In this document: in pieces, positions 1 through 19,884 of the stretch
Layout: every line of letters begins with the position of its first letter
Position numbering within the stretch: the stretch's first letter is position 1
Notes under the pieces: model-generated
Told to the model about the DNA's origin: nothing
What the model saw: only the letters and a program-made list of their open reading frames with translations
The model's database searches: none
Position numbers and translations under genes: made by a program
Origin: DASVDK01 sp036381125 [NCBI: Thermodesulfobacteriota bacterium]
Lineage (GTDB): Bacteria > DASVDK01
DNA length: 35,539 nucleotides
Assembly: GCA_036381125.1 (NCBI GenBank)
Contig: DASVDK010000296.1
Coordinates: 1 to 35,539, forward strand
Direction of reading: 5' to 3'

Positions 1-636
1 CAACGTCCCGAAGAGGTCGGGCGGCTGGCCGTGGGGTACCGTGCCGAGGGTCGGCTTGACGCCCACGATCCCGCAGCAGGCAGCCGGGATCCGGATGGAG
101 CCGCCGCCGTCGGTCCCGACGCCGAGCGGCCCCATGCCGGCCGCCACGGCGGCGCCGGCGCCGCCGCTCGACCCGCCGGGAGAGCGTGACCGGTCCCAGG
201 GGTTGCGCGTGATCCCGAAGAGCGGCGCGTCGGTGACCGCCTTGTGCCCGAACTCGGGCGTCGTCGTCTTGCCGACGAGGATGGCCCCCGCGGCTTTGAG
301 GCGCCGCACGGCCACGCCGTCCTCCGTGGGGACGAAGCCTTCGTAGAGCCGGGAACCGAAGGTCGTACGCACGCCGGCGGTCGTCACGAGGTCCTTGACC
401 GAGAAGGGGACGCCGTGGAGCGGCCCGAGCCGATCCCCGCGCCGGACGGCGGCGTCGGCCTCGATCGCGGCGCGCCGGGCCTCCTCGCGCGTGACCGTGA
501 CGAACGCGTTCAGCGACGGCTCGAGCCGCTCGATCCGACGCAGCACCGCGTCGACCACGTCCACGGGCGACAGCCGCCGCGCCCGGATCTCGTCGGCCAG
601 GCGGGTGGCCGGCGTGAAGCAGAGATCGTCGCTCAT
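1..636 (-). CDS. Amidase-signature hydrolase, N-terminal part (cut by window edge)
   Basis: Only the first 212 residues are visible; the C-terminus lies beyond base 1. The protein is an amidase-signature (AS) serine hydrolase, which cleaves carboxamides. The three catalytic residues can be placed: Lys81 in SVKDLV, the cis-Ser157 in PGGSSGGAGAA, and nucleophile Ser180 in TDGGGSIRIPAA. The ATG at 636 follows an AGGAGGG ribosome site at a good distance. It is the last visible gene of the minus-strand sulfonate operon, 40 bases after tauB. Members of this family act on many amides, so the substrate is unknown; an amide or N-acyl form of a C2-sulfonate is only a guess from context. The family is certain, the role is not. 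Confidence 0.93.
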   Translation of the reverse strand, partial: MSDDLCFTPATRLADEIRARRLSPVDVVDAVLRRIERLEPSLNAFVTVTREEARRAAIEADAAVRRGDRLGPLHGVPFSVKDLVTTAGVRTTFGSRLYEGFVPTEDGVAVRRLKAAGAILVGKTTTPEFGHKAVTDAPLFGITRNPWDRSRSPGGSSGGAGAAVAAGMGPLGVGTDGGGSIRIPAACCGIVGVKPTLGTVPHGQPPDLFGTL

Positions 637-676
637 GGTGAACCCTCCTGTACGTCCGCGCGCCGATCGCCGCGGC

Positions 677-1462
677 TCACGCCTCCTCCTCGCCCCAGAT
701 CAGGCGCAGCACCTTCTCCCGCATGGCGACGAACTCCGGCAGGGCCTTGACCGACCGGCTGCCGGCCTGCCCGGCCTGCCGCCCGAAGGGCGCCTCGATG
801 CGGGCGATGATCCGGCCCGGCCGGGGCGACATGACGATGATCGTCGTGGCGAGGTAGACCGCCTCCTCGACGCTGTGGGTGATGAGGAAGACGGTCTTCC
901 TCGTCGCCTTCCAGATCTTGAGGAGCTCGTCCTGCAGGTGCTCGCGCGTGAGCGCGTCGAGGGCGCCGAACGGCTCGTCCATGAGGAGGATTCGCGAGTC
1001 GTTCGCGAGCACGCGGGCGATGGCGACCCGCTGCTGCATGCCGCCCGAGAGGGTGTACGGCGGCTTGGCCGCGAAGTCGGCGAGCCGGACCATCTCCAGG
1101 TACTCGGTCGCGATCCGGCGCCGCTCGGCCGCGGGCACTCCGCGCATCTTGGGGCCGAACTCCACGTTGTCCCTGACCGACAGCCAGGGGTAGAGCGCGG
1201 GGTGCTGGAAGACCACCCCGCGCTCGTGGTCCGGCTCGGTGATGGGCACGCCGTCCATGAGGACCCGACCCGAGGTCGGGGGCAGGAAGCCGGCGATCAG
1301 CCTGAGGAGCGTGGTCTTCCCGCAGCCGGAAGGGCCCACGACGCAGACGAAGTCGCCTTCCCGCATGGCGAGGCTCGCCCCGGCGACGGCCGTGACCGGA
1401 CCGTCCCTCGTCTCGAAGACGACCGAGACGTCGTCGACCTCGAGGATGGGCCGGCCGGCCAC
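677..1462 (-). CDS. tauB: Taurine/sulfonate ABC transporter ATPase (TauB-like)
   Basis: This 261-residue protein is the cytoplasmic ATPase of an ABC importer. It shows a Walker A motif GPSGCGKTT, the signature LSGGMQQR, Walker B ILLMDEPFGALDA and the switch His in ITHSVEEA. ERGVVFQHPALYPW and a C-terminal FVAMREKVL stretch match the TauB/SsuB branch. The start is GTG at 1462; a GGTAGGAA ribosome site sits about 11 bases upstream. It directly follows the binding-protein gene (12-base gap) and follows the permease gene two back, giving a complete importer in the order C-A-B. Taurine as substrate rests mainly on its TauA and TauC partners; related sulfonates such as isethionate are equally possible. 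Confidence 0.92.
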   Translation of the reverse strand: MAGRPILEVDDVSVVFETRDGPVTAVAGASLAMREGDFVCVVGPSGCGKTTLLRLIAGFLPPTSGRVLMDGVPITEPDHERGVVFQHPALYPWLSVRDNVEFGPKMRGVPAAERRRIATEYLEMVRLADFAAKPPYTLSGGMQQRVAIARVLANDSRILLMDEPFGALDALTREHLQDELLKIWKATRKTVFLITHSVEEAVYLATTIIVMSPRPGRIIARIEAPFGRQAGQAGSRSVKALPEFVAMREKVLRLIWGEEEA

Positions 1463-1474
1463 GGCCGCGCGTTC

Positions 1475-2479
1475 CTACCGCCTGGCCGCCGTCTCGGCGT
1501 ACGTCGAGACCACCGCCTTCTGGAAGGTGGCCAGGTCGGGCGCCGAGCGGATGGTCTTCTGGGTCACGAGGAAGTCGGCCGCGTCCTTGAGGGCCCTGGC
1601 GACCCCGCCCTGGAGGTACTTCGGCGTCACGTGCTCCTCGGCGGTGAGGAACGTCATGGTCTTCATCTGGCGCAGCGCCTCGGCCTCGGGGATGCCGAAC
1701 TCCCTGGCCACGGCCCTGGCCGCCTCCTGGGGCTTCTCGCGGAAGAGCGTGACGGCGTCCGAGAGGGTCTTGACGTACGTGGTGACGACCTCGGGGTACT
1801 TCCGGGCGAAGTCCCTCCGGACGACCGCGACGTCGGCCGTGAGGTAGCCCTTCTCCGCGAGGGCGCGCGAGGAGACGAGGACCTCGCCGCCCGACTCGAG
1901 CATCTTGATCAGCGTCGGCTCCCAGACGAAGCCGGCGTCGATGTCGCCGCGCGTCCAGGCGGCCAGCATGTCGGGCGGCTGCATGTCGAGCACGGTCGCC
2001 TTCCTGGGGTCGAGGCCGAACTCCTTGAAGGCGACGAGGAGGTGGTAGTGCGTGGTGGAGCCGAAGGGCGCCGCCACCTTCTTGCCGGCGAGATCGGCGA
2101 CCTTCTCGACCCCCTTCCCCTTTCGGACGACGAGCGCCTCGTTGTCGCCGATGACGTCGTAGAGCCAGATGACCTCGTACGGGATGCCGCTCGAGATGCC
2201 GATGGCGGCCGGGCTCGAGCCGGTGAGACCGATGTCGACGCTGCCCGACGCCATGGCGGTGTTCACGTCGCGGCCGGAGTCGAACTGCCGCCACTCGATC
2301 TTGACGCCGAGCGCCTTCTCGTGCATGCCGAGGGCCTTGGCGATGATCTCCCCGTTCGGGATGATCTGGTAGGCGATCGTGATCTTCTCCGGCTTCGCCT
2401 GGGCGAAGAGCGGCGACGAGACCCCGGCGGCGACGAGGGTCGCGAGCGCGATGCCGACCAACCAGCGCCAGTGTTGCAT
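1475..2479 (-). CDS. tauA: Taurine-type periplasmic substrate-binding protein (TauA-like)
   Basis: This is a 334-residue periplasmic receptor. A signal peptide (MQHWRWLVGIALATLVAAG...LFAQA) is followed by a type II binding fold. Several stretches match the E. coli TauA family closely: IEWRQFDSGRDV near residue 65, STTHYHLLVAF, and MQPPDMLAAWTRGDIDAGFVW. The ATG at 2479 is preceded by GAGGGGAGG, whereas the longer open frame upstream overlaps the permease and is not used. It lies between tauC and tauB in the same operon. TauA proteins bind taurine and related sulfonates. No taurine dehydrogenase, transaminase or TauD oxygenase is in view, so the physiological ligand may be another C2-sulfonate. 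Confidence 0.92.
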   Translation of the reverse strand: MQHWRWLVGIALATLVAAGVSSPLFAQAKPEKITIAYQIIPNGEIIAKALGMHEKALGVKIEWRQFDSGRDVNTAMASGSVDIGLTGSSPAAIGISSGIPYEVIWLYDVIGDNEALVVRKGKGVEKVADLAGKKVAAPFGSTTHYHLLVAFKEFGLDPRKATVLDMQPPDMLAAWTRGDIDAGFVWEPTLIKMLESGGEVLVSSRALAEKGYLTADVAVVRRDFARKYPEVVTTYVKTLSDAVTLFREKPQEAARAVAREFGIPEAEALRQMKTMTFLTAEEHVTPKYLQGGVARALKDAADFLVTQKTIRSAPDLATFQKAVVSTYAETAARR

Positions 2480-2529
2480 GGGGCGTACCTCCCCTCTTGC
2501 GTGGGCGCGGCGGCCGGTCCGCCGCGCCG

Positions 2530-3360
2530 TCACGCCTTCCCCTTCCACGGCACGAGCCGCCGCTCGGCCACGCGGATGACCCGGTCGAGCACCACGCCGG
2601 TGAGGCCCATGACGATGATCCCCATGAAGATGATGTCCGACCGGAGGAACTTCGACGCGTCGAGGACCATCCAGCCGACCCCCGACGTGGCCGCCACCAT
2701 CTCGGCGGCGACGAGCGTCGTATAGGTGAACCCGATCGAGACCCGCATGCCGGTGAAGATGTCCGGCAGGCACGACGGCAGGAGCACGTACCGGAACACC
2801 TGCCAGCGCGACGCGCCGAGGGAGCGGGCCCCCTGGATCCGCTCCTCCGAGACCCCCCGCACCCCCGCCATGGCGCTCACCGAGAGCGGAGGGAAGGCGG
2901 CCAGGTAGAGGAGCGCGATCTTCGAGGGGTTCTCGATGCCGAGCCAGATGACGAGCAGCGTGTAGTACGCGAGCGGCGGCAGCGGCCGGTAGAACTCGAT
3001 GATCGGGTCGAAGATCGCCTGGACCTTCGTCGAGTAGCCGATGGCGAGGCCGAGCGGCACGGCGGTGACCACGGCCAGGCCGAAGCCGACGAGCACCCGG
3101 TAGAGGCTGTCGGTCAGGTGGGCGAGGAGCGTCGGTCCCCTGTACCCGTCGGTCAGCGTCTCCTGGAACGCGAGCCAGACCGACTCCGGGTGCGGGACGA
3201 ACAGCTCCGGCAGGAGCCGCCACTCGGCCACGACGTACCACGCCAGCAGGATCGCGGCGATCGTCAGAGCGGTCAGCAGCGGTTCGACGCGCCTCGAACG
3301 CCGCGTGCTCGTCATAGGGAGCGACGGCCTCCCGGGACCGGCCGGAGCGACGGCCCGCAC
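2530..3360 (-). CDS. tauC: Taurine-type ABC transporter permease (TauC-like)
   Basis: This is the inner-membrane permease of the Tau importer, about 276 residues with six predicted membrane helices. It carries FDPIIEFYRPLPPLAY and the ATPase-contact loop with ARSLGASRWQVF, both close to E. coli TauC, and ends in VPWKGKA like TauC. Two starts are possible. GTG at 3360 lies one base after the stop of the exporter gene (TGAGGTG), which suggests translational coupling. ATG at 3315 gives a 261-residue protein with a usual N-terminus but has no visible ribosome site. I keep the longer form because all neighbours are coupled. Confidence 0.92.
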   Translation of the reverse strand: MRAVAPAGPGRPSLPMTSTRRSRRVEPLLTALTIAAILLAWYVVAEWRLLPELFVPHPESVWLAFQETLTDGYRGPTLLAHLTDSLYRVLVGFGLAVVTAVPLGLAIGYSTKVQAIFDPIIEFYRPLPPLAYYTLLVIWLGIENPSKIALLYLAAFPPLSVSAMAGVRGVSEERIQGARSLGASRWQVFRYVLLPSCLPDIFTGMRVSIGFTYTTLVAAEMVAATSGVGWMVLDASKFLRSDIIFMGIIVMGLTGVVLDRVIRVAERRLVPWKGKA

Positions 3361-3361
3361 C

Positions 3362-5613: not shown

Positions 5614-6128
5614 CAGAAGAGGCCCAGCCGGTGGTAGATCCACACGGTCGCGTCGAGGAGCGGCCCCTGGCCGCGCGGCAGCGGGACGTAGACGACCTTC
5701 ACGAACAGGTAGAGCAGCACGAGCGTGGCGGCGACCGCCGAGAGCCCGACCGTCGCGGGCCTCCGGTAGCGCCCGACCCGCATGAAGAGCGCGAGGAAGA
5801 TCGGCGTGGCGAGGACGAAGCCGGCGACCGGGAGGAGCGCGGTGTAGGCGAAGAGGAGGACGACGGCCAGGGTGACGCGACGCCGGTCGACGGCCTCGCC
5901 GTCGGCGCGTCCTCCGTTGCCGCCCGCCGCTTCGCGCCGCCCCCGGCCCCGCACCACCTGGACGATCTTGACGCCCGACAGGACGGCGAGGCCGGCGACG
6001 CCGAGCCGCGGCCAGAAGTCCGGCCCGAGCTGCCCCGGCACCGGGACGATCGGGATGTCGCCCGCCGCGACCCAGAGCAGGGCCGCGGCGGCGACGAGCA
6101 GGACCGGCCCGACGAGCGATCCGACCAT
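5613..6128 (-). CDS. tctB: TTT transporter small permease (TctB family)
   Basis: This is the 171-residue small membrane subunit of the TTT transporter, with four predicted helices: one at residues 3-20, one around 38-55, and two in the second half after a charged linker. GPDFWPRLG is a typical TctB motif after the first helix. The start ATG at 6128 overlaps the tctC stop by one base (TAATG), and the stop overlaps the tctA start the same way. This tight chain suggests translation of receptor and permeases in fixed ratio. The longer upstream frame is inside tctC and is rejected. Confidence 0.92.
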   Translation of the reverse strand: MVGSLVGPVLLVAAAALLWVAAGDIPIVPVPGQLGPDFWPRLGVAGLAVLSGVKIVQVVRGRGRREAAGGNGGRADGEAVDRRRVTLAVVLLFAYTALLPVAGFVLATPIFLALFMRVGRYRRPATVGLSAVAATLVLLYLFVKVVYVPLPRGQGPLLDATVWIYHRLGLF

Positions 6129-7093
6129 TACCTGGCCTTGAGCCCGAATTCCTTGACGTACGCGTTGAGGACGTTCTCCTGCTCGCGGATCCACGCCGGG
6201 AACTGGTCGGGCCCCATGTAGCTGTCGGGACGCATGTACCAGTCGGCCGCGAACTTCTTCCACTCGGCGCTCTCCATGGCCTTGCGGAACGCCTCGGCGA
6301 GCGTCCTCAGCCGGTCGGGCGGCGTGCCGGCCCTGGCCACGATCCCTCGGAACTGCGGCAGCTCCACCTCGAAGCCCAGCTCGCCGGAGGCCGGCACGTC
6401 GGGGAAGGCCGGATGCCGCCTGGCCGCGAAGATGATGAGCGGCTTGAGCTGCTTCGCCTCGAGGAAGCTCTTCACGTCGCCCGCCTGCTCGTAGAGGACT
6501 TCGTTGTGACCGCCGACGACCGCCGCGTAGCGCTCGCCCGGCTTGGGGTACGGCACGACGGTCATCGGGAAGCCCCGATGGCCGAGGTAGCGGACCGTGA
6601 GGTCGTCGACGGTGCCGAAGCCGGTCGTCGCCACGCGCAGCTTGCCGGGGTTCGCCTTCGCGTGCGCGAGGAGCGCGTCGATCGTCTGGAAGGGGCCGTC
6701 GGCCTTCACGAAGAGGAACGAGTCGGCGACCTGCGTCCGGACGACCCAGGCGAGGTCGTCGACCTTGTAGGAGGCGAGCCCCAGGGCGATCGTGCAGAGC
6801 GTGTCCATGATGTACGTGGCGACCTGGTAGCCGTCCGGCCGGCCGTTCAGGATCTGCGCGAGCCCGGTGTTGCCCGAGCCGCCCGGGACGTTCACCGCCG
6901 GCAGCGCGACGCCGAGGTGGGGCTGCGCGAGCTGGGAGAGCTGGCGCGCCATCGAGTCGGCCCCGCCGCCCGGTCCCCAGGTGACGACGATCTCGACCGG
7001 CCGGGTCGGGTACTTCTCCTGCGCAACCGCCGGTCCGCTCGCCACGAGAGTGGCCGCGGCGGCCGCCGCGAGGGTCCTCCGCGTTCGTGTCAT
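6128..7093 (-). CDS. tctC: TTT transporter periplasmic receptor (TctC/Bug family)
   Basis: This 321-residue receptor has a signal peptide (MTRTRRTLAAAAAATLVASGPAVAQ) and then YPTRPVEIVVTWGPGGGADSM, the first ligand-binding loop of Bug proteins. The second typical loop, FGTVDDLTVRYL, follows in the middle, with DVPASGELGFEVE later. It has no lipobox, so it is expected to be free in the periplasm. The ATG at 7093 has an AAGGAGG ribosome site and overlaps the pta stop by four bases. It feeds TctAB next door. The ligand is unknown; a C2-sulfonate carboxylate such as sulfoacetate fits the operon. Confidence 0.94.
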   Translation of the reverse strand: MTRTRRTLAAAAAATLVASGPAVAQEKYPTRPVEIVVTWGPGGGADSMARQLSQLAQPHLGVALPAVNVPGGSGNTGLAQILNGRPDGYQVATYIMDTLCTIALGLASYKVDDLAWVVRTQVADSFLFVKADGPFQTIDALLAHAKANPGKLRVATTGFGTVDDLTVRYLGHRGFPMTVVPYPKPGERYAAVVGGHNEVLYEQAGDVKSFLEAKQLKPLIIFAARRHPAFPDVPASGELGFEVELPQFRGIVARAGTPPDRLRTLAEAFRKAMESAEWKKFAADWYMRPDSYMGPDQFPAWIREQENVLNAYVKEFGLKAR

Positions 7094-8082
7094 CGGGCGC
7101 CTCCTTTTCCGCGTGCCTGCAGGGCGCCGATCGCAGCCACGGTCACGATGTCGTCAACCTGGCACCCTCGGGACAGGTCGTGCATGGGCTTCGCGAGCCC
7201 CTGGATGACGGGGCCGATCGCCTCGGCCCCGCCGAGCCGTTCGGTGATCTTGTAGGCGATGTTGCCGGCGTCGAGGTTCGGGAACACGAAGACGTTGGCG
7301 CGGCCCGGCACCGTCGAGCCGGGGGCCTTGCGCCGCCCGACCGCCTCCACCCAGGCGGCGTCGAACTGCAGCTCGCCGTCGATGTCGAGGTCCGGGCGGG
7401 CCGTGCGGGCCCGGGCCGTCGCCTCGCGCACCTTCGTGACCGCCTCGTGCTCGGCGCTCCCCTTCGTGCTGAACGACAGCATGGCCACGACCGGCTCCTC
7501 GCCGGTGAGGCGCCGGTGGGTCTCGGCCGACGAGAGGGCGATCGTCGCCAGGCCGGCGGCGTCGGGGTACGGGACGACCGCGCAGTCGCCGTAGGTGACG
7601 ACCCGCCCGTCCGGCAGGGCCATGAGGAAGACGCTGCTCGCGAGGCCCACGTCCGGTGCAAGCCCGATCACGTGGAGGGCCGCCCGGAGGACGTCGGCCG
7701 TGCGGCTCATCGAGCCCCCCACGCAGGCGTCCGCCTCGCCCGTCCGCACGAGCATGGCGCCGAAGACCAGCGGCGCGCGGACCGCCTCGCGGGCCTGCTC
7801 GGCCGTCATCCCCTTCGCCCGCCTCAGGTCGTGGAGGATCGCCGCGAACCGCTCCGCCCGGGGATCGGTCGCGGGATCGATCACGCCGACCGACGAGGGG
7901 TCGACGCCGGCGCGCCGCAGCGCGCCCGGCTCGCCGAGGAGGACCGGTCGCGCGATCCCCTCGCGCGCCAGGACGAGGGCCGCCTCGACGACCCGCGGGT
8001 CGGCCGACTCCGGCAGGACGACGCGCGCCGAGAGCGCCGACGCCGCCCGGCGAATCCGGTGGACGACCGGCGAGAGGCTCAC
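7090..8082 (-). CDS. pta: Phosphate acetyltransferase, short form
   Basis: This 330-residue enzyme converts acetyl phosphate and CoA to acetyl-CoA and phosphate in the cytoplasm. It is the short form without the N-terminal P-loop domain. The PTA/PTB fold is clear from DACVGGSMSRTADVLRA, LSFSTKGSAEHEAVTKV, the LQFDAAW segment, and VFVFPNLDAGNIAYK near residue 260. The start GTG at 8082 overlaps the preceding ligase gene by four bases. In sulfonate degraders Xsc yields acetyl phosphate, and a co-transcribed Pta passes it to acetyl-CoA; that is the evident role here. No acetate kinase is in the window. Confidence 0.95.
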   Translation of the reverse strand: MSLSPVVHRIRRAASALSARVVLPESADPRVVEAALVLAREGIARPVLLGEPGALRRAGVDPSSVGVIDPATDPRAERFAAILHDLRRAKGMTAEQAREAVRAPLVFGAMLVRTGEADACVGGSMSRTADVLRAALHVIGLAPDVGLASSVFLMALPDGRVVTYGDCAVVPYPDAAGLATIALSSAETHRRLTGEEPVVAMLSFSTKGSAEHEAVTKVREATARARTARPDLDIDGELQFDAAWVEAVGRRKAPGSTVPGRANVFVFPNLDAGNIAYKITERLGGAEAIGPVIQGLAKPMHDLSRGCQVDDIVTVAAIGALQARGKGGAR

Positions 8083-8972
8083 GGCCGGCCCCGCGGTCCG
8101 GCCGAGAGCCCCAGTTCCCGAAGGACCGGGCCGATCCGCGAGGGGACGTCCACGACGCGCGCGCCGCCCCTCGCCAGGGCGGCCATCTTGGCGGCCGCGC
8201 TCCCCTTCCCGCCCGACACGATGGCGCCCGCGTGCCCCATCCGCTTGCCGGGGGGGGCCGCCTGGCCGGCGACGAGCGCGACGACCGGCTTCGACATCCG
8301 CGGGACGTACTCGGCGGCCTCCTCCTCCATGCCGCCCCCGACCTCGCCCACGAGCACGATCGCCCGGGTCCGCGTGTCGGCCTCGAAGGCCCGGAGGACG
8401 TCGAGGTGGCTCGTCCCGTTGACCGCGTCGCCGCCGATCCCGACGAAGGCCGACTCGCCGAACCCGTCGCGCACGAGGTTGAGGCAGACGAGGGTGCCGA
8501 GGCTGCCGCTGCGCGAGACGACGCCGATCTCGCCGGGCCGGAAGATGTTGTCGGCCCAGGCCGGCATGATGCCGACGAAGGTCTCGCCCGGCGTGACCAG
8601 GCCGGGGCAGTTCGGTCCCACGACGCGCGCCCCCGCGTCGCGCGCCTCGGCGAGGACGGCCATGACGTCGTGCACCGGAATGTGCTCGGTGAGGACGACG
8701 ACCAGCTTCACGCCGGCGCCGATCGCCTCGAGGGCGGCCCCCTTCGCCGCCATCGGCGGCACGAAGAGGACCGACACGTCGACCGGACCGGCGGTCACGG
8801 CGTCGCGCACGCTGCCGAAGACCGGGACGCCCGAGACCGACTGGCCCGCCTTGCCGGGGCTCACGCCGGCCACCACGCGGGCGCCGTACTCGAGCATCCG
8901 CTCGGTCCAGAAGGAGGCCTCCCTGCCGGTGATCCCCTGGACGAGGATGCGGGCGTCGCGCCGCAGGATCAC
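8079..8972 (-). CDS. ADP-forming acyl-CoA ligase, alpha subunit (SucD-like)
   Basis: This 297-residue subunit carries the CoA-binding Rossmann domain and the ligase domain of the succinyl-CoA synthetase family. QGITGREASFWTERMLEYG and GVSPGKAGQ match the CoA-binding half, and RMGHAGAIVSGGKGSAAAK contains the phosphorylated histidine (His247). The start GTG at 8972 overlaps the beta-subunit stop (GTGA). Because it lies between an acylating sulfoacetaldehyde-type dehydrogenase and pta, the pair probably makes sulfoacetyl-CoA from sulfoacetate, CoA and ATP, instead of the single-chain AMP-forming SauT known in Cupriavidus. Succinyl-CoA or malyl-CoA ligase activity cannot be excluded by sequence alone. 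Confidence 0.9.
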   Translation of the reverse strand: MILRRDARILVQGITGREASFWTERMLEYGARVVAGVSPGKAGQSVSGVPVFGSVRDAVTAGPVDVSVLFVPPMAAKGAALEAIGAGVKLVVVLTEHIPVHDVMAVLAEARDAGARVVGPNCPGLVTPGETFVGIMPAWADNIFRPGEIGVVSRSGSLGTLVCLNLVRDGFGESAFVGIGGDAVNGTSHLDVLRAFEADTRTRAIVLVGEVGGGMEEEAAEYVPRMSKPVVALVAGQAAPPGKRMGHAGAIVSGGKGSAAAKMAALARGGARVVDVPSRIGPVLRELGLSAGPRGRP

Positions 8973-10099
8973 GACCGCTGCCTCGCGGCCTCGACGGCGG
9001 CCCTGACCGCGTCGTCCATCAGGTCGCAGGGGGTGATGCCGAGCCGCGCCTTCACGAGCTCGATCGCCCGCGCCTCGCCGGTCCCGTGGATGGAGAACGC
9101 GACCGGGAGGCTCGGCGCGAGCGCCTCCCACCCGGCCAGGAAGCCCTCGATGATCACGTCGGTGCGTGCGTAGGCGCCGCAGAGGTTCACCAGGAGGCTC
9201 TTCACGCGGGGGTTCGCGAGGACGAGACCGAGCGCCTCGGTGGCGCGCCGGTAGTTCTGGCCGCCGATCTCGAGGAAGTTGGCCGGCCGCCCGCCGAAGT
9301 GGGCGACCGCGTCCATCGTCGCCATGGTGAGCCCCGCGCCGTTGGCGAGGACCCCCACGTCGCCGTCGAGCTCGACGAAGAGGAGCCCCTGCTCGGCCCC
9401 CCGGCGCTCGAGCTCGGTCCCGGCGTGGGCCGGCTTCGGCAGCTCCGGGTGGCGGCCGACCGCGGCGTCGTCGATCACCACCTTCGCGTCGAGCGCCACC
9501 ACCCCGCCTCCCGGCTCGAGCGCGAGCGGGTTCACCTCGACCAGGTCGGCGTCGGTCGACCGGTAGACGGCGTAGAGCGTCGAGAGGAGCCGCGCGACGC
9601 CGGCGGCCGCGGGCCCGAGGCCGGCGCCGCCGAGCGCCGCCTCGGCCTCCGCGACCTCGAGCGGACGCCGGATGTCGAGCGGGCGCTGGATCACCGCGCC
9701 GGGCCGGACGGCGAAGGTCTCCTCGATGTCGACACCGCCCTCGGTCGAGAAGAGCAGCACCGGGCAGCGGCGCGCCGCGTCGGTCACGACGGCGGCGTAG
9801 AGCTCGCGCGCGATGTCGACCCGCGCCTCCACGCGCACCGCGTCCACGCGGAAGCCGGACACGTCGGATCCCAGGAGGTCCTGCGCCGCGACCCGGGCGT
9901 CGTCGGGAGTCGCGGCGAAGCGGATCCCCCCGCCCTTGCCTCGCCGCCCCGCCGGGACCTGGGCCTTGACGACGACCGGCCGCCCGACGGCCCGGGCGGC
10001 CTCGGCCGCCTCGTCGGCGGTGGTCGCCCTCGCCCCGCCGGGGACGCGTACGCCCGCCCGGGCCAGGATCGCCTTTGCCGCCCCTTCCTCGAGGAACAC
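8969..10099 (-). CDS. ADP-forming acyl-CoA ligase, beta subunit (SucC-like, ATP-grasp)
   Basis: This 376-residue protein is the ATP-grasp subunit that pairs with the SucD-like protein encoded next. An N-terminal ATP-grasp region has VVVKAQVPAGRRGKGGG and, later, DLVEVNPLAL; the C-terminal ligase domain has VGVLANGAGLTMATMD and PANFLEIGG. It starts at GTG 10099, three bases after the dehydrogenase stop, using a GGAG inside the end of that gene. Its length is a little below the usual 386-398. The role inferred from context is an ATP-dependent sulfoacetate-CoA ligase. The reaction is reversible in this family, so sulfoacetyl-CoA could also be cleaved to gain ATP. Confidence 0.9.
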   Translation of the reverse strand: MFLEEGAAKAILARAGVRVPGGARATTADEAAEAARAVGRPVVVKAQVPAGRRGKGGGIRFAATPDDARVAAQDLLGSDVSGFRVDAVRVEARVDIARELYAAVVTDAARRCPVLLFSTEGGVDIEETFAVRPGAVIQRPLDIRRPLEVAEAEAALGGAGLGPAAAGVARLLSTLYAVYRSTDADLVEVNPLALEPGGGVVALDAKVVIDDAAVGRHPELPKPAHAGTELERRGAEQGLLFVELDGDVGVLANGAGLTMATMDAVAHFGGRPANFLEIGGQNYRRATEALGLVLANPRVKSLLVNLCGAYARTDVIIEGFLAGWEALAPSLPVAFSIHGTGEARAIELVKARLGITPCDLMDDAVRAAVEAARQRS

Positions 10100-10102
10100 G
10101 CC

Positions 10103-11545
10103 CTAGCTCCCGTACCGCCGGAGGTAGTCGCCCCAGAGCGCCTCGTCGGTCGGCTCCTCGAGCGGGATCGGGCGCGACACCAGGGTGTAGTTGAGGAAGT
10201 GGGTGTAGGTGAGGTTCTCGTTGATGGAGTCGCCGCCCCAGATGCCGCAGGCGAGCGTGAGGGTGAACCTGAGCCCGTTGTCGAAGGCGCCGCCGTTGCC
10301 GATGCAGTGTGCCTGGTTCACGAGAACGCGGCCGACCTTGATCGTCACCGACTCGGCGAGCCGCCGGACGTGCTCGTCGTTCCGCGTGTGGATGCCGCAG
10401 GAGTGCCCCTTGCCCTGGTAGTCGAGGATGCCCGCCACGGTGCGGATCGCCTCGTCGAACTCGCCGTACCGGTAGAGCGTGAGGACGACCGACAGCTTCT
10501 CGCCCGAGAAGGGGTAGGCCTTCCCGTAGCCCGTCTCCTCGACCATCAGGAACGCGGCCTCCCTGGCCTCCGGGCTCGTGAGCCCGGCCAGCTCGGCGAT
10601 CCGGGCCGGCGGCTTCGCCACCACCTCGCGGTTGATGGCGCCGTTCGTCCACATCACGGCCCCGAGCCGCGCCTTCTCCTCGGGGGTGCAGAGGTAGCCC
10701 CCCTGCCTGCGCAGCTCGGCCACCATCCGGTCGTAGACGCCGGCCTGGATGACGAGGGCGTTCTCGGAGGAGCAGGAGGTCGCGTAGTCGAAGGTCTTGC
10801 TCTTGCGGATCTTCACCGCCGCCGACGCGAGGTCGGCCGTCTCGTCCACGATGACCGCCGCGTTGCCCGTGCCGGCCGAGACGGCCGGGCGGCCGCTGCG
10901 GTAGGCCGAGCGGACCTTCGGCTGCCCGCCGGTGACGAGCACCAGGTCCACCTGCTTCATCAGCTCGTCCCCGAGGGCGCGGGAGCGCTTCGGGTTCGGG
11001 GCCTTCAGCACCTGCACGATGTCGAGCGGCGCGCCGACCTTCTTCAGCTCCTCGTGGACCAGGCGGACGACCTCGAGGCAGGTCTTCTCGCCCGAGGGGT
11101 GCGGGGAGAGGACGATGGCGTTGCGCCCCTTGAGGACGCACATGATGTTGTGGACCGGAGTCGCGGCCGGGTTCGTGAGCGGGACGAACGCCCCCACCAC
11201 GCCGATCGGCTTGGCGATCTTGACGAGGCCCCGCGCGGGGTCCTCCTCGACCACGCCGACCGACTTCGCCCCCGTGAGGTCGCGCATCGTCCCCTTGGTC
11301 TTGCGTCGCAGCTTCGAGACCTTGTCCTCGAGGCGGCCGAGCCGGCTCTCCTCCCACGCCATCCGCCCGAGCGCCTCGGCGTTCGCGTAGCCGGCCCAGG
11401 CGGCGCCGGCCACGACCGCGTCCGTACGCGCCTGGTCGAACGTCTCGAACTCCGCCTGTGCCGCGCGCGCGCGGGCGACGAGGTCGCGGACGTACTGCTG
11501 CTCGTTCACGTCGAGAACCGCCGTCCCGGACACCGTCGTCTCCAC
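10103..11545 (-). CDS. sauS: CoA-acylating aldehyde dehydrogenase, probable sulfoacetaldehyde dehydrogenase (SauS-like)
   Basis: This 480-residue enzyme belongs to the CoA-acylating aldehyde dehydrogenases. The NAD-binding region contains PIGVVGAFVPLTNPAATP, and the catalytic Cys258 lies in FDYATSCSSENALVI. GHSCGIHTRN and ACGIWGGDSINENLTY are typical of the acylating group. The GTG at 11545 has an AGGAGG ribosome site seven to eight bases upstream, and the long open frame further upstream is antisense and rejected. SauS of Cupriavidus reduces sulfoacetyl-CoA to sulfoacetaldehyde; adjacency to xsc, pta and a CoA ligase makes this the best assignment. Acetaldehyde or another short aldehyde is the alternative. 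Confidence 0.88.
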   Translation of the reverse strand: METTVSGTAVLDVNEQQYVRDLVARARAAQAEFETFDQARTDAVVAGAAWAGYANAEALGRMAWEESRLGRLEDKVSKLRRKTKGTMRDLTGAKSVGVVEEDPARGLVKIAKPIGVVGAFVPLTNPAATPVHNIMCVLKGRNAIVLSPHPSGEKTCLEVVRLVHEELKKVGAPLDIVQVLKAPNPKRSRALGDELMKQVDLVLVTGGQPKVRSAYRSGRPAVSAGTGNAAVIVDETADLASAAVKIRKSKTFDYATSCSSENALVIQAGVYDRMVAELRRQGGYLCTPEEKARLGAVMWTNGAINREVVAKPPARIAELAGLTSPEAREAAFLMVEETGYGKAYPFSGEKLSVVLTLYRYGEFDEAIRTVAGILDYQGKGHSCGIHTRNDEHVRRLAESVTIKVGRVLVNQAHCIGNGGAFDNGLRFTLTLACGIWGGDSINENLTYTHFLNYTLVSRPIPLEEPTDEALWGDYLRRYGS

Positions 11546-11556
11546 CGTGCTCCCTC

Positions 11557-12864
11557 CTACCAGTAGGTCAAGGCGTCCCGATAGATCCCCTTGAGGTCGT
11601 CCATGGTGATCTCGCGGGGGGCGTTGTGCAGGAGTCGCTTCTGGGGAAACGACCCCTCGGCCAGCGCGTCGATGTCGGCTTCCGAGTACCCCACCTCCCG
11701 CAGGCCGTTCGGCATGTGGGTCGCCTTCATGAGCCTGATGATGGTGTCGGCCAGGAGCCGGCCTGCGTCCCGGAGGTCCACGTCGGTCGTGTCGGCGCCG
11801 AGGAGCCCCGCCGCCTCGATGTGGCGCTCCGGGCAGGCCGGCGCCGTGAAGCGGAAGACGGCCGGCGCGTTCAGGATGACCGACATGCCGTGGGGGACCA
11901 TCGGCTTGGCCGGGTAGTCCTTCGCCCGGAAGTCGCGCACCATGCCGGACACGGAGTACGACATGCCGTGCGGCGCGTGGCAGCCCGCGTTGCCGAAGCC
12001 GATGCCGGCCAGCGTGGCCGCGAACATCATCTGCTCGCGCGCCTCGACGTCGTTCGGGTCGTTGACCGCCCGGACGATGTACCGGCCGGTGAGCCGCATC
12101 GCCTCGGCGCAGGCGATGTCGCTGTACGGGTTGGCCCCCTGCGAGGCCGGCCGCTGCCTCGGCTGGGCCGACCGGGCCCGCCTGGTGAAGGGCAGCGCCG
12201 TGTACGACTCGACCGAGTGGCAGAGGACGTCGAAGCCGCTGCACGCCACCACGGTGGCCGGCATGGTCTTCGTCACGGTGGGGTCGATGAGGCCGAGGAC
12301 CGGCCGGATCCGCCTCGACACGATCCCGGTCTTCGCGTGCATCGACGTGAGGTCGAAGATCGCGATCGGCGTGCACTCGGACCCGGTGCCGGAGGTGGTC
12401 GGCACGGCGATCAGCGGCTTCACCGGGCCGGGCACCGGCTTCGCCTTCCCGATGGGGGCGTTCACGTAGTCGAGGAAGTCGGCCGGGTACGTGGCGTAGA
12501 GGTTCGCCGCCTTGGCCGTGTCGATCACCGACCCCCCGCCGACGGCCACGTACCCGTCGAACTTCCCCTCCGTGGCGAACGCCGCCGCCTGCTTGAACGA
12601 CGCGTCGGTCGGCTCGACCGTGACCTGGTCGTAGAGGATGACCTCCACGCCGGCCCGGGCGAGCGACTCCTGCACGACGGCGACGTGCTCGGTCTTCGCC
12701 AGGTTCGCGTCGGTGAGGAGCATGACGCGCGTCATGCCGTGCACCTGCGCGTCGTCGCCGATCTCCCGGAGCACGCCCGGACCGTACTTGACCGCGTTCG
12801 CGTCCACGGAGAAGGCCGTGTCGCCTCCCTCCGCGAATGCGTAGTACCCGAATCCACAGGCCAT
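11557..12864 (-). CDS. Iron-type alcohol dehydrogenase, hydroxyacid-oxoacid transhydrogenase branch
   Basis: This 435-residue protein is a group III (iron-type) alcohol dehydrogenase. It resembles the ADHFE1 hydroxyacid-oxoacid transhydrogenase branch: [11 protein letters not shown] at the N-terminus, [19 protein letters not shown] for NAD binding, [14 protein letters not shown], and metal ligands in [12 protein letters not shown] and [14 protein letters not shown]. The ATG at 12864 has a GGAGG site. It sits between xsc and the acylating dehydrogenase, so it may interconvert isethionate and sulfoacetaldehyde, feeding Xsc. That substrate is inferred only from context; a transhydrogenase handling 4-hydroxybutyrate-like acids is the alternative suggested by homology. 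Confidence 0.85.
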
Positions 12865-12909
12865 GGTGAGGGCCTCCGTCCGCGAGGCCGGGCTCGGGCC
12901 CGGCCCCGC

Positions 12910-14622
12910 CTATTGCCTGTACCTGGGGAGGTACCGGACCGGCTTCTTGAGGGCGTCGCGGCGGAACGGATCGGCCAGCTCCTCGCCGTCCACCATGATG
13001 TCGAGGACCGTCGGCCGCCCCGACCGAAGCGCCGCGGACACGGCGTCGCGCACCTCGCCCGGGTGCTCGATCCGGTGTCCGTCGGCCCCCATTGCGCGCG
13101 CGACCGCCGCGAAGTCGGGGTTCTTCAGATTGGTCCCGATGAAGCGGTTGTCGTAGTAGTCGATCTGGTTCTTCTTCTCGGCGCCCCACTGCATGTTGTT
13201 GAAGACGCAGGCGACGACCGGGATGTTCTCCTGGACGGCCGTGATGACCTCCTGCAGGCTCATCCCCCACGCCCCGTCGCCGACGATGGCCACGACCGGG
13301 CTCTTCGGCTCGGCGACCTTGGCGCCGAGGGCGGCCGGGTAGGCGAAGCCGCAGTTGCCGAAGGAGAGCGCCGCCAGGAAGCGCCGCGGCCTCTCGAACC
13401 CGAGGAAGCTGTTGGAGGTGGAGCAGACGTTGCCGATGTCGGTCGTGACGATGGTGTCGGGCGTGAGCGCCGCCGCCAGCTCCCTGAGGGCCCGCTTCGG
13501 GCTCATCGGCGTGCGCGACGAGGACGCCAGCTCGTCGAGCTCCTTCTGCCACTTCGCGTTCTCGGCCGCCACGAGCGCCCGGCGCTCCGCATCGGGCCTG
13601 CGCGCGCCGCCGTCGAGCGCCGTGAGCCGCGAGAGGATCTCCCGGGCCGCCTCCCTCGCGTCGCCCACGATGCCGCAGGCGATCGGCTTGGTGAGCCCGA
13701 GCTGCCGGTGGTCGATGTCCACCTGGATGATCTTCGCGGTCTTCGGGAAGTAGTCGAAGCCGTACTGGGGGAGCGTCCCGAAGATCGACAGCCGGGTGCC
13801 GAGGGCGAGGACCACGTCGGCCTTCGAGATGAGCTGCATCGCCGACTTCCACCCGCAGTAGCCGAGCGGGCCCGCCATGAGCGGGTGCGACGCCGGGAAG
13901 GCGTCGTTGTGGAGGTAGGACGTCACGACCGGCGCCGTGAGGTACTCGGCCAGGGCCTTCACCTCCGCGATGCCGTCGGCGATGACGACCCCCTGCCCGG
14001 AGATGATCACCGGGAACCTCGCGTCCTTGAGAATCCGCGCCGCCGCGTCGAGCGACGCGGCGCCGCCCGGGCCCCGATCGGCCCACCGGTACTGCTCGGG
14101 CCTCAGGATCTCGGTGTCGATCTCCGCATAGAAGAAGTCGCGGGGGATGTCCACCTGGGCCGGGCCGCGCTCGGCGATCGCGATCCGGAACGCCGTCCGG
14201 ACCGACTCGGCGATCCGGTCGGGCCGCGGCACGCGCACCTGGTACTTCGTGATCGGCTGGAAGATCGGGAGCTGATCGGTCTCCTGGAAGCCGTTCGTCC
14301 CGACCATCGTCGTCGAGGCGGCCGGCGAGAGCATGACGACCGGCGTGTGCGCGTGGTACGCCGCCGCGATCCCCGTGACCATGTTGGTGATCCCGGGGCC
14401 GTTCTGGGCCGTGCAGACGCCCGGCTTCCCCGACACGCGGGCGTAGCCGTCGGCCATGTGCGCCGCCGTCTGCTCGTGACGGACCGGCAGGAATCGGATC
14501 TCCGCCTTCGGGAAGATGTCGAGGGCGTCCATGAACGCCGACCCGACGATCCCGGTGATCACCTCGGTCCCTTCGGCGCGCAACTGCTCGACCAGCGCCT
14601 CGCTGGGGCTCATCACTGGCAT
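12910..14622 (-). CDS. xsc: Sulfoacetaldehyde acetyltransferase
   Basis: Xsc is a thiamine-diphosphate enzyme that cleaves sulfoacetaldehyde with phosphate to acetyl phosphate and sulfite, breaking the C-S bond. The 570-residue protein has the N-terminal cofactor Glu (Glu50 in RHEQTAAHMADGYAR), the middle domain with SYLHNDAFPASHPLMAGPLG and LGTRLSIFGTLPQYGFDY, and the ThDP-binding GDGAWGMSLQEV followed by NNMQWGAEKKNQ. The C-terminal PFRRDALKKPVR is typical of Xsc and not of acetolactate synthase. The ATG at 14622 follows GGGAGGAAG. It is slightly shorter than most Xsc (about 590-600). It is the first enzyme gene after the regulator. Confidence 0.95.
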   Translation of the reverse strand: MPVMSPSEALVEQLRAEGTEVITGIVGSAFMDALDIFPKAEIRFLPVRHEQTAAHMADGYARVSGKPGVCTAQNGPGITNMVTGIAAAYHAHTPVVMLSPAASTTMVGTNGFQETDQLPIFQPITKYQVRVPRPDRIAESVRTAFRIAIAERGPAQVDIPRDFFYAEIDTEILRPEQYRWADRGPGGAASLDAAARILKDARFPVIISGQGVVIADGIAEVKALAEYLTAPVVTSYLHNDAFPASHPLMAGPLGYCGWKSAMQLISKADVVLALGTRLSIFGTLPQYGFDYFPKTAKIIQVDIDHRQLGLTKPIACGIVGDAREAAREILSRLTALDGGARRPDAERRALVAAENAKWQKELDELASSSRTPMSPKRALRELAAALTPDTIVTTDIGNVCSTSNSFLGFERPRRFLAALSFGNCGFAYPAALGAKVAEPKSPVVAIVGDGAWGMSLQEVITAVQENIPVVACVFNNMQWGAEKKNQIDYYDNRFIGTNLKNPDFAAVARAMGADGHRIEHPGEVRDAVSAALRSGRPTVLDIMVDGEELADPFRRDALKKPVRYLPRYRQ

Positions 14623-14666
14623 GAACTGGCTTCCTCCCTGTTCGACGTGACGGTCGCGGACACGCG

Positions 14667-15461
14667 TCAGGATCGGCCGCGGCCCTCGCGCGACGCCTCG
14701 AGATACGCGCCGAGCTGGTCGGCCGCGGCGCGGAGATCGCCGAGGTGCTCGCGGGCCCTCGCGAGCGGCAGCCGGGCGCTCGGCGCCGAGACGGCGAGCC
14801 CCGCCAGCACCTTGCCCCGCCCGTCCCGCACCGGCACGGCGACACAGCAGACCCCGGCCAGGAACTCCTCGTTGTCCTCGGAGTGGCCGCGCGCCCGCGT
14901 GACGGCCAACTCGTCCTCGAGCCGGGCCCGGCTCGTGAGCGTGTTGCCGGTGCGAGGCTCGAGCGCCGCCACCATGAGGAGCCGCTCGCGCACCGCCTTC
15001 GGGGCGAAGGCGAGGAGTAGCTTCCCGATGGCGGTGCAGTGGATCGGCACCCGGCTGCCCGGCTTGAGCTCCATCCGCAAAGGCCACGACGACTCGACGC
15101 GCTCGAGGTACATCACCTCCCCCCCGTGCAGGACGCCGAGGTTCACCGTCTCGCCGAGCCGCTCCGAGAGCCGCTTGAGCACCGCCCGCCGGTTGCGGTG
15201 GACCGGAGCGGTCCGCAGCGCGTTCAGCGCCAGGCCGTCGAAGCGGCCCGCCACGACGTAGCGGCGCGCGAGGGGATCGCGCTCGATGAGCCCCTCCCCT
15301 TCGACGAGGGCGGCGAGGCGGTGCACCGTCGCCTTGGGCAGGCCGACCGCCCGGCTCAGCTCGGCCAGGCTGAGCGGCGCATCGGCCCCGGCCACGGCCG
15401 CGAGGATCCGCAGCGCCCGCACGACCGGCGAGTCAGCGGGGGATCCGTTTGTTCCACTCAC
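14667..15461 (-). CDS. IclR-family transcriptional regulator of the sulfonate operon
   Basis: This 264-residue regulator has an N-terminal winged helix-turn-helix (LSLAELSRAVGLPKATVHRL, residues about 31-50) and a C-terminal IclR effector domain with YLERVESSWPLRMELKPG, HCTAIGKLLLAF and the cysteine pair in GVCCVAVPV. It starts at GTG 15461. It lies 44 bases upstream of xsc on the same strand, so it probably heads the operon and controls its own promoter. Two GAAC/GTTC palindromes around that promoter are likely binding sites. The effector could be a C2-sulfonate or an intermediate, which the sequence cannot show. Confidence 0.93.
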   Translation of the reverse strand: MSGTNGSPADSPVVRALRILAAVAGADAPLSLAELSRAVGLPKATVHRLAALVEGEGLIERDPLARRYVVAGRFDGLALNALRTAPVHRNRRAVLKRLSERLGETVNLGVLHGGEVMYLERVESSWPLRMELKPGSRVPIHCTAIGKLLLAFAPKAVRERLLMVAALEPRTGNTLTSRARLEDELAVTRARGHSEDNEEFLAGVCCVAVPVRDGRGKVLAGLAVSAPSARLPLARAREHLGDLRAAADQLGAYLEASREGRGRS

Positions 15462-15463
15462 CG

Positions 15464-15476
15464 GAACGTCTCGTTC
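15464..15476. promoter_or_regulatory. Palindrome GAACG-TCT-CGTTC, candidate IclR operator 1
   Basis: A perfect 5-bp inverted repeat with a 3-bp spacer lies three bases upstream of the iclR GTG start, downstream of the likely promoter. GTTCC/GGAAC half sites also occur just inside the gene (15451-15467). It shares GAAC/GTTC half sites with the palindrome at 15528-15540, though with a different spacing. A site here would block transcription start or elongation. Confidence 0.5.
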
Positions 15477-15489
15477 TGTTCACTGGATC

Positions 15490-15519: not shown

Positions 15520-15527
15520 CGCTTTTC

Positions 15528-19880: not shown

Positions 19881-19884
19881 GGGC

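What the first reader, a model, noticed from the sequence alone, without database searches (positions are those of the whole stretch)
1..15461. A complete C2-sulfonate operon: import, CoA activation, C-S cleavage, sulfite export and regulation in one strand run
xsc, pta, a SauS-like acylating dehydrogenase, a two-subunit CoA ligase, a TSUP exporter, two importers and an IclR regulator are consecutive, mostly with 1-4 base overlaps. Each step from sulfoacetate to acetyl-CoA plus sulfite has a candidate gene. Homologues of single steps are known; this full gene set in one operon is, to my knowledge, not a standard layout.
Basis: partly seen in the sequence, partly recalled or inferred. Interest (0 to 1): 0.85.

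Follow-up and report, generated by a model that had tools for sequence, protein, structure and literature searches.

The report
Sulfoacetate and isethionate breakdown operon
A run of fifteen bacterial genes looks able to import two-carbon sulfonates and break them into ordinary acetyl-CoA and sulfite; most of the recipe recurs in other microbes, but it includes an unexpected enzyme, related to a human metabolic enzyme, that may feed isethionate into the pathway in a new way.

Summary
In detail: 15 minus-strand genes (15461 to 1) encode IclR, Xsc, an iron alcohol dehydrogenase, SauS, SauC, SauD, Pta, TctCBA, a TauE/SafE protein, a TauCAB-like importer and a cut amidase. Xsc and SauS pass NCBI's curated cut-offs; SauC is of the SauS-linked type, though SauD also passes the succinate-ligase alpha model. 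Import, CoA activation, reduction and C-S cleavage of sulfoacetate are well supported by homology. The layout is not unique: 17 of 80 sampled SauS loci also hold xsc with sauCD, and 6 of 80 add pta and TctA. It is a variant of the known SauSCD/SauXYZ route with Xsc in place of isethionate sulfolyase.
The iron dehydrogenase carries both inserts that define hydroxyacid-oxoacid transhydrogenases (HOT). HOT-type genes lie near xsc or sauS in at least four HOT lineages, including a haloarchaeon with sauS-HOT-xsc-pta consecutive, and one substrate-pocket residue is shifted in those lineages. I propose that HOT oxidises isethionate to sulfoacetaldehyde, possibly using a 2-oxoacid instead of free NAD+. 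This is inference: HOT is rare (3 of 80 SauS loci), the window enzyme's closest relatives are not xsc-linked, and nothing is assayed. Host: probably Chloroflexota.

The parts
14667..15461 (-). IclR-family regulator, first gene of the run (GTG start)
   Evidence: Pfam IclR_C 151 bits, HTH_IclR 54 bits; no NCBIfam equivalog reaches its cut-off
12910..14622 (-). xsc, sulfoacetaldehyde acetyltransferase (ThDP enzyme, C-S cleavage)
   Evidence: TIGR03457 equivalog 836.1 bits, cut-off 676.4; PRK07525 838 bits, cut-off 620; ThDP GDG...NN motif from residue 448
11557..12864 (-). iron-containing alcohol dehydrogenase of the hydroxyacid-oxoacid transhydrogenase (HOT) type; proposed isethionate oxidation; not named in the finding
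   Evidence: Pfam Fe-ADH 151 bits; no NCBIfam equivalog passes, SarD 206 of 700 needed; the annotated plasmid relatives at 41-46% identity are named hydroxyacid-oxoacid transhydrogenase; both HOT inserts and metal ligands D212, H216, H299, H325
10103..11545 (-). sauS, CoA-acylating sulfoacetaldehyde dehydrogenase
   Evidence: NF047625 equivalog 637.9 bits, cut-off 600; Cys258 in the TSCSSEN motif; inside the 73-row SauS set that holds all activator-linked rows, branch 100/99
8969..10099 (-). sauC, ATP-grasp subunit of a proposed ADP-forming sulfoacetate-CoA ligase
   Evidence: ATP-grasp_2 158 bits; below the cut-offs of SucC models (314.5 of 370, 285.9 of 375.6); the 11 best plasmid relatives, 52-56%, all come from SauS-bearing Azospirillum, Indioceanicola and Rhodococcus records (adjacency to sauS read in L001, L002, L003, L008), the next is 39%
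8079..8972 (-). sauD, CoA-binding subunit of the ligase
   Evidence: TIGR01019 361.8 bits, subfamily cut-off 353.2; it also passes the succinate-CoA ligase alpha equivalog NF004230, 354.9 of 336, so the model alone does not separate it from SucD; phosphohistidine-type motif GHAGA, His247
7090..8082 (-). pta, phosphate acetyltransferase
   Evidence: TIGR00651 355.7 bits, cut-off 311.2
6128..7093 (-). tctC, solute-binding protein of a tripartite tricarboxylate transporter (SauXYZ-like role)
   Evidence: Pfam TctC 109.5 bits
5613..6128 (-). tctB, small membrane subunit
   Evidence: Pfam TctB 69 bits
4117..5613 (-). tctA, large membrane subunit
   Evidence: Pfam TctA 460 bits
3362..4120 (-). TauE/SafE (TSUP) membrane protein, proposed sulfite exporter
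   Evidence: Pfam TauE 107.9 bits
2530..3360 (-). TauC/SsuC-like ABC permease
   Evidence: best PRK10160 TauC 253.7 bits, below cut-off 342
1475..2479 (-). TauA/SsuA-like sulfonate-binding protein
   Evidence: TIGR01729 taurine binding 289.1 bits, just below cut-off 304.25; SsuA subfamily TIGR01728 178.5, above cut-off 163.5
677..1462 (-). TauB/SsuB-like ABC ATPase
   Evidence: PRK11248 TauB 288.9 bits, below cut-off 357
1..636 (-). amidase-signature protein, cut by the window start; role unclear
   Evidence: Pfam Amidase 256 bits; none of the 25 NCBIfam models shown reaches its cut-off, gene incomplete

Best explanation
The run is a catabolic operon for two C2-sulfonates that meet at sulfoacetaldehyde. 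Sulfoacetate enters through the tripartite transporter, is activated to sulfoacetyl-CoA by SauCD with ATP, and is reduced by SauS to sulfoacetaldehyde. Xsc cleaves sulfoacetaldehyde with phosphate to sulfite and acetyl phosphate, Pta makes acetyl-CoA, and the TauE-type protein exports sulfite, under IclR control. A second sulfonate, most likely isethionate, enters through a transporter (the ABC importer is the candidate) and is oxidised to sulfoacetaldehyde by the HOT-type iron dehydrogenase. Shown here: gene content, order, strand, family membership and recurrence. Inferred from characterised relatives: the reactions of Xsc, SauS, SauCD and Pta. Inferred from gene association only: isethionate as the HOT substrate, and the substrates of both transporters.
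For: Xsc and SauS pass curated equivalog cut-offs. SauC is of the SauS-linked type: plasmid relatives drop from 52-56% to 39% at the edge of that set. xsc lies with sauCD in 17 of 80 SauS loci, and with pta as well in 15 of 80. Azospirillum and Indioceanicola plasmids hold IclR, pta, TctCBA, sauS, sauC, sauD and xsc (in Indioceanicola xsc is on the other strand). HOT within about 8 kb of xsc or sauS recurs: in 8 of 11 SauS-bearing Actinomycetota genomes examined, in Halomarina sp. PSR21 as sauS-HOT-xsc-pta-CoA-transferase, and in genome G277, there with xsc only, no sauS seen. In a control set of 20 HOT loci that I picked from a draw of 396 Actinomycetota genomes, 1 lay near xsc (Fisher p 0.002-0.005, not corrected for kinship). 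The linked label needs at least 4 changes on the HOT tree. Residue 295, four before a metal ligand, is Cys in the window and Thr in the three other linked lineages, and V/V/V/L in their sisters, the only such column of 435 (expected 0.047, P 0.045); by my count from the metal ligands it is FucO Leu259, which lines the substrate pocket (passages of PMC10324492). Thr or Cys is found in 12 of 13 HOT genomes with xsc and 3 of 69 without.
Against: No activity, expression or growth was measured. HOT is found in only 3 of 80 SauS loci, and 15 of the 17 loci with xsc and sauCD lack it. The window HOT's closest relatives are not near xsc: 0 of 4 Actinomycetota loci (56-60%) and 0 of 20 Chloroflexota loci (46-62%, several on short contigs). 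The window has Cys, not Thr, at residue 295, and one Chloroflexota genome without xsc (G985) has Cys too. G235 has xsc but a Val-type HOT; G211 and G159 have Thr without xsc. Neither a flavin oxidase that could re-oxidise D-2-hydroxyglutarate nor a taurine aminotransferase or dehydrogenase is among the window genes scanned with Pfam. SauD passes the succinate-CoA ligase alpha equivalog.
Confidence: 0.6

Rival explanations
1. The operon degrades sulfoacetate only; the HOT-type enzyme works in reverse, reducing surplus sulfoacetaldehyde to isethionate for excretion or redox balance, like the SarD/TauF-type reductases.
For: In Bilophila a reductase, TauF, makes isethionate from sulfoacetaldehyde (passage of PMC12890257; that SarD/TauF are iron-containing dehydrogenases and that HOT reactions are reversible is recalled).
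Against: Two importers and Xsc in one run favour consumption of sulfoacetaldehyde. HOT is next to an MFS symporter in seven linked loci (L009, L016, L105, L107, L108, L112, L170), but not in L014, and the same pairing occurs in unlinked HOT loci. The window enzyme is far below the SarD cut-off, 206 of 700 bits.
Confidence: 0.2
2. HOT, SauS and SauCD form a 4-hydroxybutyrate branch (4-hydroxybutyrate to succinate semialdehyde to succinyl-CoA to succinate) that merely shares an operon with xsc and pta.
For: Mammalian HOT acts on 4-hydroxybutyrate (passage of PMC5125639). The closest solved structure to SauS by sequence is a CoA-acylating succinate-semialdehyde dehydrogenase, 8cei, 328 bits. SauD passes the succinate-CoA ligase alpha equivalog, 354.9 of 336.
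Against: SauS passes the sulfoacetaldehyde equivalog cut-off, and SauC fails both SucC cut-offs. SauS-SauCD cluster with xsc and without HOT in 15 of 17 loci. In Halomarina HOT lies between sauS and xsc, and no SauCD was among the genes scanned there.
Confidence: 0.1
3. The main use is taurine or N-acyltaurine: the ABC importer and amidase bring in and hydrolyse the substrate, an aminotransferase elsewhere makes sulfoacetaldehyde, and SauS-SauCD run backwards to make sulfoacetate and ATP as overflow.
For: The binding protein scores 289 against a taurine cut-off of 304; the amidase is adjacent; SqwD-SqwKL run in the oxidative direction in fermenters (passages of PMC11489063 and PMC12890257). 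A promoter-like site just before tauC leaves room for separate control of these genes.
Against: No taurine aminotransferase or dehydrogenase among the window genes scanned; a TTT importer of the SauXYZ kind and Xsc argue for uptake. TauA- and TauC-like genes were not seen in the 80 SauS loci at the thresholds used. The amidase is incomplete.
Confidence: 0.12

Closest known systems
Bilophila wadsworthia SauS-SauCD with SauXYZ (Liu et al. 2023, not held; known here from passages of PMC12890257 and PMC12625764)
   Same: ADP-forming sulfoacetate-CoA ligase in two subunits, acylating sulfoacetaldehyde dehydrogenase, tripartite transporter for sulfoacetate
   Different: There sulfoacetaldehyde is reduced to isethionate and cleaved by the glycyl radical enzyme IseG; here Xsc plus Pta are the candidates, and no radical enzyme is among the window genes scanned
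Cupriavidus necator H16 sau cluster, sauST with SauU (Weinitschke et al. 2010, not held; known from passages of PMC12625764 and recall)
   Same: Sulfoacetyl-CoA and sulfoacetaldehyde as intermediates; Xsc and Pta as final steps in the aerobic route (recalled)
   Different: SauT, an AMP-forming single-chain ligase (recalled), and an MFS importer there; a two-chain ADP-forming type and TTT here
sauSCD plus TTT cluster of an Arctic sponge symbiont (OTU3, PMC12625764, passages read)
   Same: sauS with sauCD and TTT in an organism whose bins also hold xsc and pta
   Different: The passages read do not place xsc, pta, exporter or HOT in that cluster
Azospirillum and Indioceanicola plasmid clusters (L002, L003, L008)
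   Same: IclR, pta, TctCBA, sauS, sauC, sauD and xsc in about 12-16 kb
   Different: No HOT, TauE or Tau-type ABC genes listed there; a molybdenum oxidoreductase set instead
Halomarina sp. PSR21 plasmid cluster (L115)
   Same: IclR, sauS, HOT, xsc, pta, TctABC
   Different: Class III CoA-transferase where the window has SauCD; TRAP transporter where the window has an ABC importer; archaeon
Hydroxyacid-oxoacid transhydrogenase, ADHFE1/cd08190 (PMC5125639, passages read)
   Same: Iron-type dehydrogenase with both defining inserts
   Different: The known substrate is 4-hydroxybutyrate with 2-oxoglutarate; here the neighbours point to isethionate

Membership tests
Xsc (TIGR03457) | score over curated equivalog cut-off 676.4 | tested here: met
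   836.1 bits
Xsc (TIGR03457) | phosphate-dependent release of sulfite from sulfoacetaldehyde | not testable with these tools
   needs enzyme assay
SauS (NF047625) | score over curated equivalog cut-off 600 | tested here: met
   637.9 bits; in the 73-row set with the activator-linked rows, 100/99
SauCD, ADP-forming sulfoacetate-CoA ligase | SucCD-type pair adjacent to sauS | tested here: met
   sauS-sauC gap 3, sauC-sauD overlap 4
SauCD, ADP-forming sulfoacetate-CoA ligase | distinct in sequence from succinate-CoA ligase | tested here: inconclusive
   SauC: SucC cut-offs not reached, identity gap 52% to 39%. SauD: passes the SucD equivalog NF004230, 354.9 of 336
SauCD, ADP-forming sulfoacetate-CoA ligase | activity on sulfoacetate, not succinate | not testable with these tools
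   needs enzyme assay
SauT route (C. necator) | AMP-forming ligase next to sauS | tested here: not met
   no AMP-binding domain among the genes of the run
Bilophila sulfoacetate route | isethionate sulfolyase (glycyl radical enzyme) for C-S cleavage | tested here: inconclusive
   none among the window genes scanned with Pfam, Xsc present instead; the rest of the genome is not held
HOT (cd08190) | 19-residue insert between helices 5 and 6, and 13-residue insert between helices 8 and 9 (PMC5125639) | tested here: met
   about 18 and 12-13 residues present; three non-HOT dehydrogenases lack the first and lack or shorten the second
HOT (cd08190) | transhydrogenase reaction with 2-oxoglutarate | not testable with these tools
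   needs assay; the AlphaFold2 model was too poor to use
Taurine ABC importer TauABC | equivalog cut-offs of TauA, TauB, TauC | tested here: not met
   289 of 304, 289 of 357, 254 of 342 bits
SarD sulfoacetaldehyde reductase (NF050025) | equivalog cut-off 700 | tested here: not met
   206.2 bits

The most novel reading that the evidence does not exclude
HOT-type iron dehydrogenases were recruited at least four times, in bacteria and in a haloarchaeon, as isethionate:2-oxoacid transhydrogenases that feed Xsc. Isethionate would be oxidised to sulfoacetaldehyde with an internal cofactor and a 2-oxoacid acceptor, D-2-hydroxyglutarate being returned by a flavin oxidase (a candidate lies beside HOT and near xsc in Sciscionella marina, L112), and a small polar residue at pocket position 295 would mark the sulfonate form.
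Probability: 0.3. Interest if true: 0.72.

Novelty: new variant of a known kind. Interest (0 to 1): 0.5.

Why it matters
Sulfoacetate and isethionate are products of taurine and plant sulfosugar breakdown, so their aerobic sinks matter for the sulfur cycle. The window joins what look like both inputs at one cleavage enzyme in one operon, in what is probably a high-GC Chloroflexota lineage. If the HOT step is right, it gives a second kind of isethionate dehydrogenase beside the known flavoprotein (recalled), a physiological role for a bacterial branch of the ADHFE1 family, and a sequence mark for finding it in genomes.

Tried and rejected
Whole-genome context: no genome is held for the window, so D-2-hydroxyglutarate dehydrogenase, acetate kinase, taurine genes and the rest of the amidase could not be sought.

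Structure: one AlphaFold2 job on the HOT-type protein with four sequences gave mean pLDDT 56 and was not used.

Residue test: my first permutation returned p = 0.986, because L162 had been merged into a 28-row lineage whose majority residue is Val. I replaced it by the sister-contrast test (P 0.045). That test was chosen after seeing the pattern, so it is exploratory. The genome counts that followed were partly blind: a copy with Thr or Cys in 12 of 13 HOT genomes with xsc, against 3 of 69 HOT genomes without a match at E 1e-100 (38, 31; residues; Fisher in 121). Ten of the 13 came from the SauS search, kin are not independent, and several of the 13 also carry a Val copy; within the Actinomycetota draw alone it is 3 of 4 against 2 of 38. 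G043, G147 and G266 (all Val) and G338 (residue not readable) were not searched for xsc and are left out. An earlier Fisher entry had one genome too few and was redone in 119; the count of 58 xsc-free genomes used in 118-119 grew to 69 when the unread copies were read.

Rows dropped: the HOT tree left out L006 (a 286-residue piece, best match 32% to the Halomarina protein), rows with internal stops and duplicate proteins; the residue table also left out L074, L099, L100 as non-HOT.

HOT and MFS pairing was considered as a sulfonate mark and rejected, since unlinked HOT genes on Rhodococcus and Mycobacterium plasmids have it too.

Rfam found nothing; the promoter and terminator scan gave one site of each kind, none decisive; inverted repeats upstream of iclR were not followed up.
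Full report
Observation. Gene calling and family scans confirm one minus-strand run from 15461 down to the window start: iclR, xsc, an iron-containing dehydrogenase, sauS, sauC, sauD, pta, tctC, tctB, tctA, a TauE/SafE gene, tauC-, tauA- and tauB-like ABC genes, and an amidase cut by the window edge. Gaps range from -4 to +50 bases; six of 14 junctions overlap. No terminator-like site lies on that strand in 1-16600, which is weak evidence; one promoter-like site ends four bases before the chosen tauC start. The finding's gene list is right but omits the dehydrogenase at 11557-12864 and the amidase.

Enzyme identities. Xsc scores 836 bits against a curated cut-off of 676, and SauS 638 against 600. 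SauC is below the cut-offs of both succinate-CoA ligase beta models. SauD passes the alpha subfamily model and also the succinate-CoA ligase alpha equivalog (354.9 of 336), so by model alone it cannot be told from SucD. On plasmids the 11 best SauC relatives (52-56%) are all from SauS-bearing Azospirillum, Indioceanicola and Rhodococcus records; in the four of these regions that I read, sauC is adjacent to sauS. The next relative is at 39%. Expected catalytic motifs are present: SauS Cys258, SauD His247, the ThDP motif of Xsc. The ABC genes resemble TauABC but all three miss the equivalog cut-offs, so 'sulfonate-type importer' is as far as the evidence goes.

Recurrence. At the thresholds printed, 40 of 80 have sauC or sauD, 17 have the AMP-forming sauT, 2 only a CoA-transferase and 21 none of these. 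Of the 80, 20 hold xsc within the stretch: 17 with sauCD and 3 with sauT. Fifteen of 80 hold xsc, sauCD and pta; six of 80 add TctA (L025, L026, L029, L030, L069, L072). Many stretches are cut by contig ends, so these are lower bounds. Azospirillum and Indioceanicola plasmids show the same core, with xsc on the other strand in Indioceanicola, and a Rhodococcus plasmid shows pta, xsc, sauS, sauC, sauD, IclR and a TauE/SafE gene. In a tree of 91 SauS proteins the window's row lies in the 73-row set that holds all activator-linked rows (and 6 others), apart from 18 rows without activators (branch 100/99), as a deep branch of its own. The gene set is therefore a recurring arrangement, not a unique one.

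Known work. Passages of PMC12890257 and PMC12625764 describe SauCD, SauS and SauXYZ in Bilophila wadsworthia, where isethionate and a glycyl radical enzyme complete the route, sauST in Cupriavidus necator, and a sauSCD cluster with TTT in a sponge symbiont. Passages of PMC11489063 describe SqwD-SqwKL running in the opposite, ATP-yielding direction. The primary papers are not held.

The overlooked enzyme. The dehydrogenase passes no NCBIfam equivalog. Its nearest annotated plasmid relatives, 41-46% identical, are named hydroxyacid-oxoacid transhydrogenase. PMC5125639 (passages) states that all HOT proteins carry a 19-residue and a 13-residue insert absent from other members. The window protein has inserts of about 18 and 12-13 residues at these places, while three non-HOT members lack the first and lack or shorten the second. 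Halomarina's protein has the first but not the second. Metal ligands D212, H216, H299 and H325 are conserved.

HOT is linked to sulfonate genes repeatedly. I examined 30 genomes with SauS (30 of the 80 loci), 11 of them Actinomycetota by title. Nine of these 11 have a HOT at 44% identity or more, and in 8 a copy lies within about 8 kb of xsc or sauS; in the ninth (G010) xsc is on another contig. In L009 (Acidothermales) pta, xsc, IclR, HOT with two MFS transporters, sauS, sauC and sauD fill one 14 kb contig. On a Halomarina sp. PSR21 plasmid, sauS (677 bits), HOT, xsc (701 bits), pta and a class III CoA-transferase follow each other on one strand, with TctABC on one side and IclR and a TRAP transporter on the other. 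Genome G277 has MFS-HOT and xsc about 8 kb apart, with no sauS seen. As a control, of 20 HOT loci that I picked from a draw of 396 Actinomycetota genomes (46 with HOT), only that one lay near xsc. A tree of 60 dehydrogenases puts the linked actinobacterial copies in one starred clade (8 of 9 rows linked, the ninth being G010), the window in another, Halomarina and G277 in two more; the label needs at least four changes. In Sciscionella marina a flavin/iron-sulfur protein of the D-2-hydroxyglutarate dehydrogenase kind (that name is recalled; Pfam gives FAD-oxidase_C, FAD_binding_4 and Fer4_8) is divergent to HOT (L112); HOT genes elsewhere also pair with such proteins.

A pocket residue. Comparing each linked lineage with its sister, one column of 435 changes to the same class in all four: residue 295 (Cys in the window, Thr in the other three; Val or Leu in sisters). 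Shuffling within conservation bins gives 0.047 expected and P = 0.045. By my count from the metal ligands it is FucO Leu259, which lines the substrate pocket (passages of PMC10324492). Among HOT genomes searched for xsc, 12 of 13 with xsc and 3 of 69 without have a copy with Thr or Cys there. Exceptions: G235 (xsc, Val), G211, G159 and G985 (no xsc; Thr, Thr, Cys). The 13 are biased to the SauS search and kin are not independent, and the first version of the test failed (see Tried and rejected).

Against the HOT reading. Only 3 of 80 SauS stretches hold HOT. The window's HOT is closest to Chloroflexota copies (up to 62%, 31 of 400 genomes with a copy) and to four Actinomycetota copies at 56-60%. 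None of 20 Chloroflexota loci and none of these four lies near xsc (L205 has only a weak ThDP-enzyme match, 35%, 99 bits), and none of the 31 Chloroflexota genomes has xsc at E 1e-100. So in the window's own lineage HOT may have joined the operon recently, and its specificity may not have shifted fully.

Host. Chloroflexota is likely; phyla without a locus here could not be tried.

Print check. In the open-licence library, 'isethionate' with 'hydroxyacid-oxoacid transhydrogenase' gave 0 papers, and 'isethionate', 'iron-containing alcohol dehydrogenase', 'sulfoacetaldehyde' gave 0. Subscription papers were not searched.

Verdict. A real gene run, a new variant of a known kind for sulfoacetate, with an uncharacterised HOT-type step that most likely adds isethionate.

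Noticed in passing
window 19014-22710 and 31228-35537: Two sets of molybdenum hydroxylase genes (FAD, iron-sulfur and molybdopterin subunits) with CoxG, MoxR-type AAA, CoxE-type VWA and XdhC proteins and a TetR regulator beside the sulfonate operon; the gene at 35019-35537 was not scanned.
   Followed up: no
L005 9932-12598; L115 10757-17906; L015 and L017: In two haloarchaeal plasmids and two Chloroflexi MAGs SauS lies with a CoA-transferase instead of a ligase: perhaps a third way to activate sulfoacetate.
   Followed up: partly
L038, L043, L047, L048, L050, L059, L065, L077 and other rows: A separate SauS-like clade of 18 rows, mostly Anaerolineae, Spirochaetota and Oscillospiraceae, without activator genes by the queries used; function unclear.
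   Followed up: no
L107 5150-7890; L014 14885-16366: CobS/CobT-like AAA and VWA genes between xsc and HOT in two actinobacteria.
   Followed up: no
L002, L003, L008, L108, L170: Molybdopterin oxidoreductase-like genes near xsc, perhaps sulfite oxidation in place of sulfite export.
   Followed up: no
window 12910-14622: The best solved-structure match of this Xsc by sequence is BbmA (8x3x, 256 bits); no chain named Xsc appears among the 60 of 149 shown.
   Followed up: no
L055, L068, L082, L087: MAG contigs labelled Bordetella parapertussis carry sau clusters and group with other betaproteobacterial MAGs; the labels look doubtful.
   Followed up: no
window 16573-17565 and 29718-30755: Two long open frames with no Pfam match at E 1e-5.
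   Followed up: no
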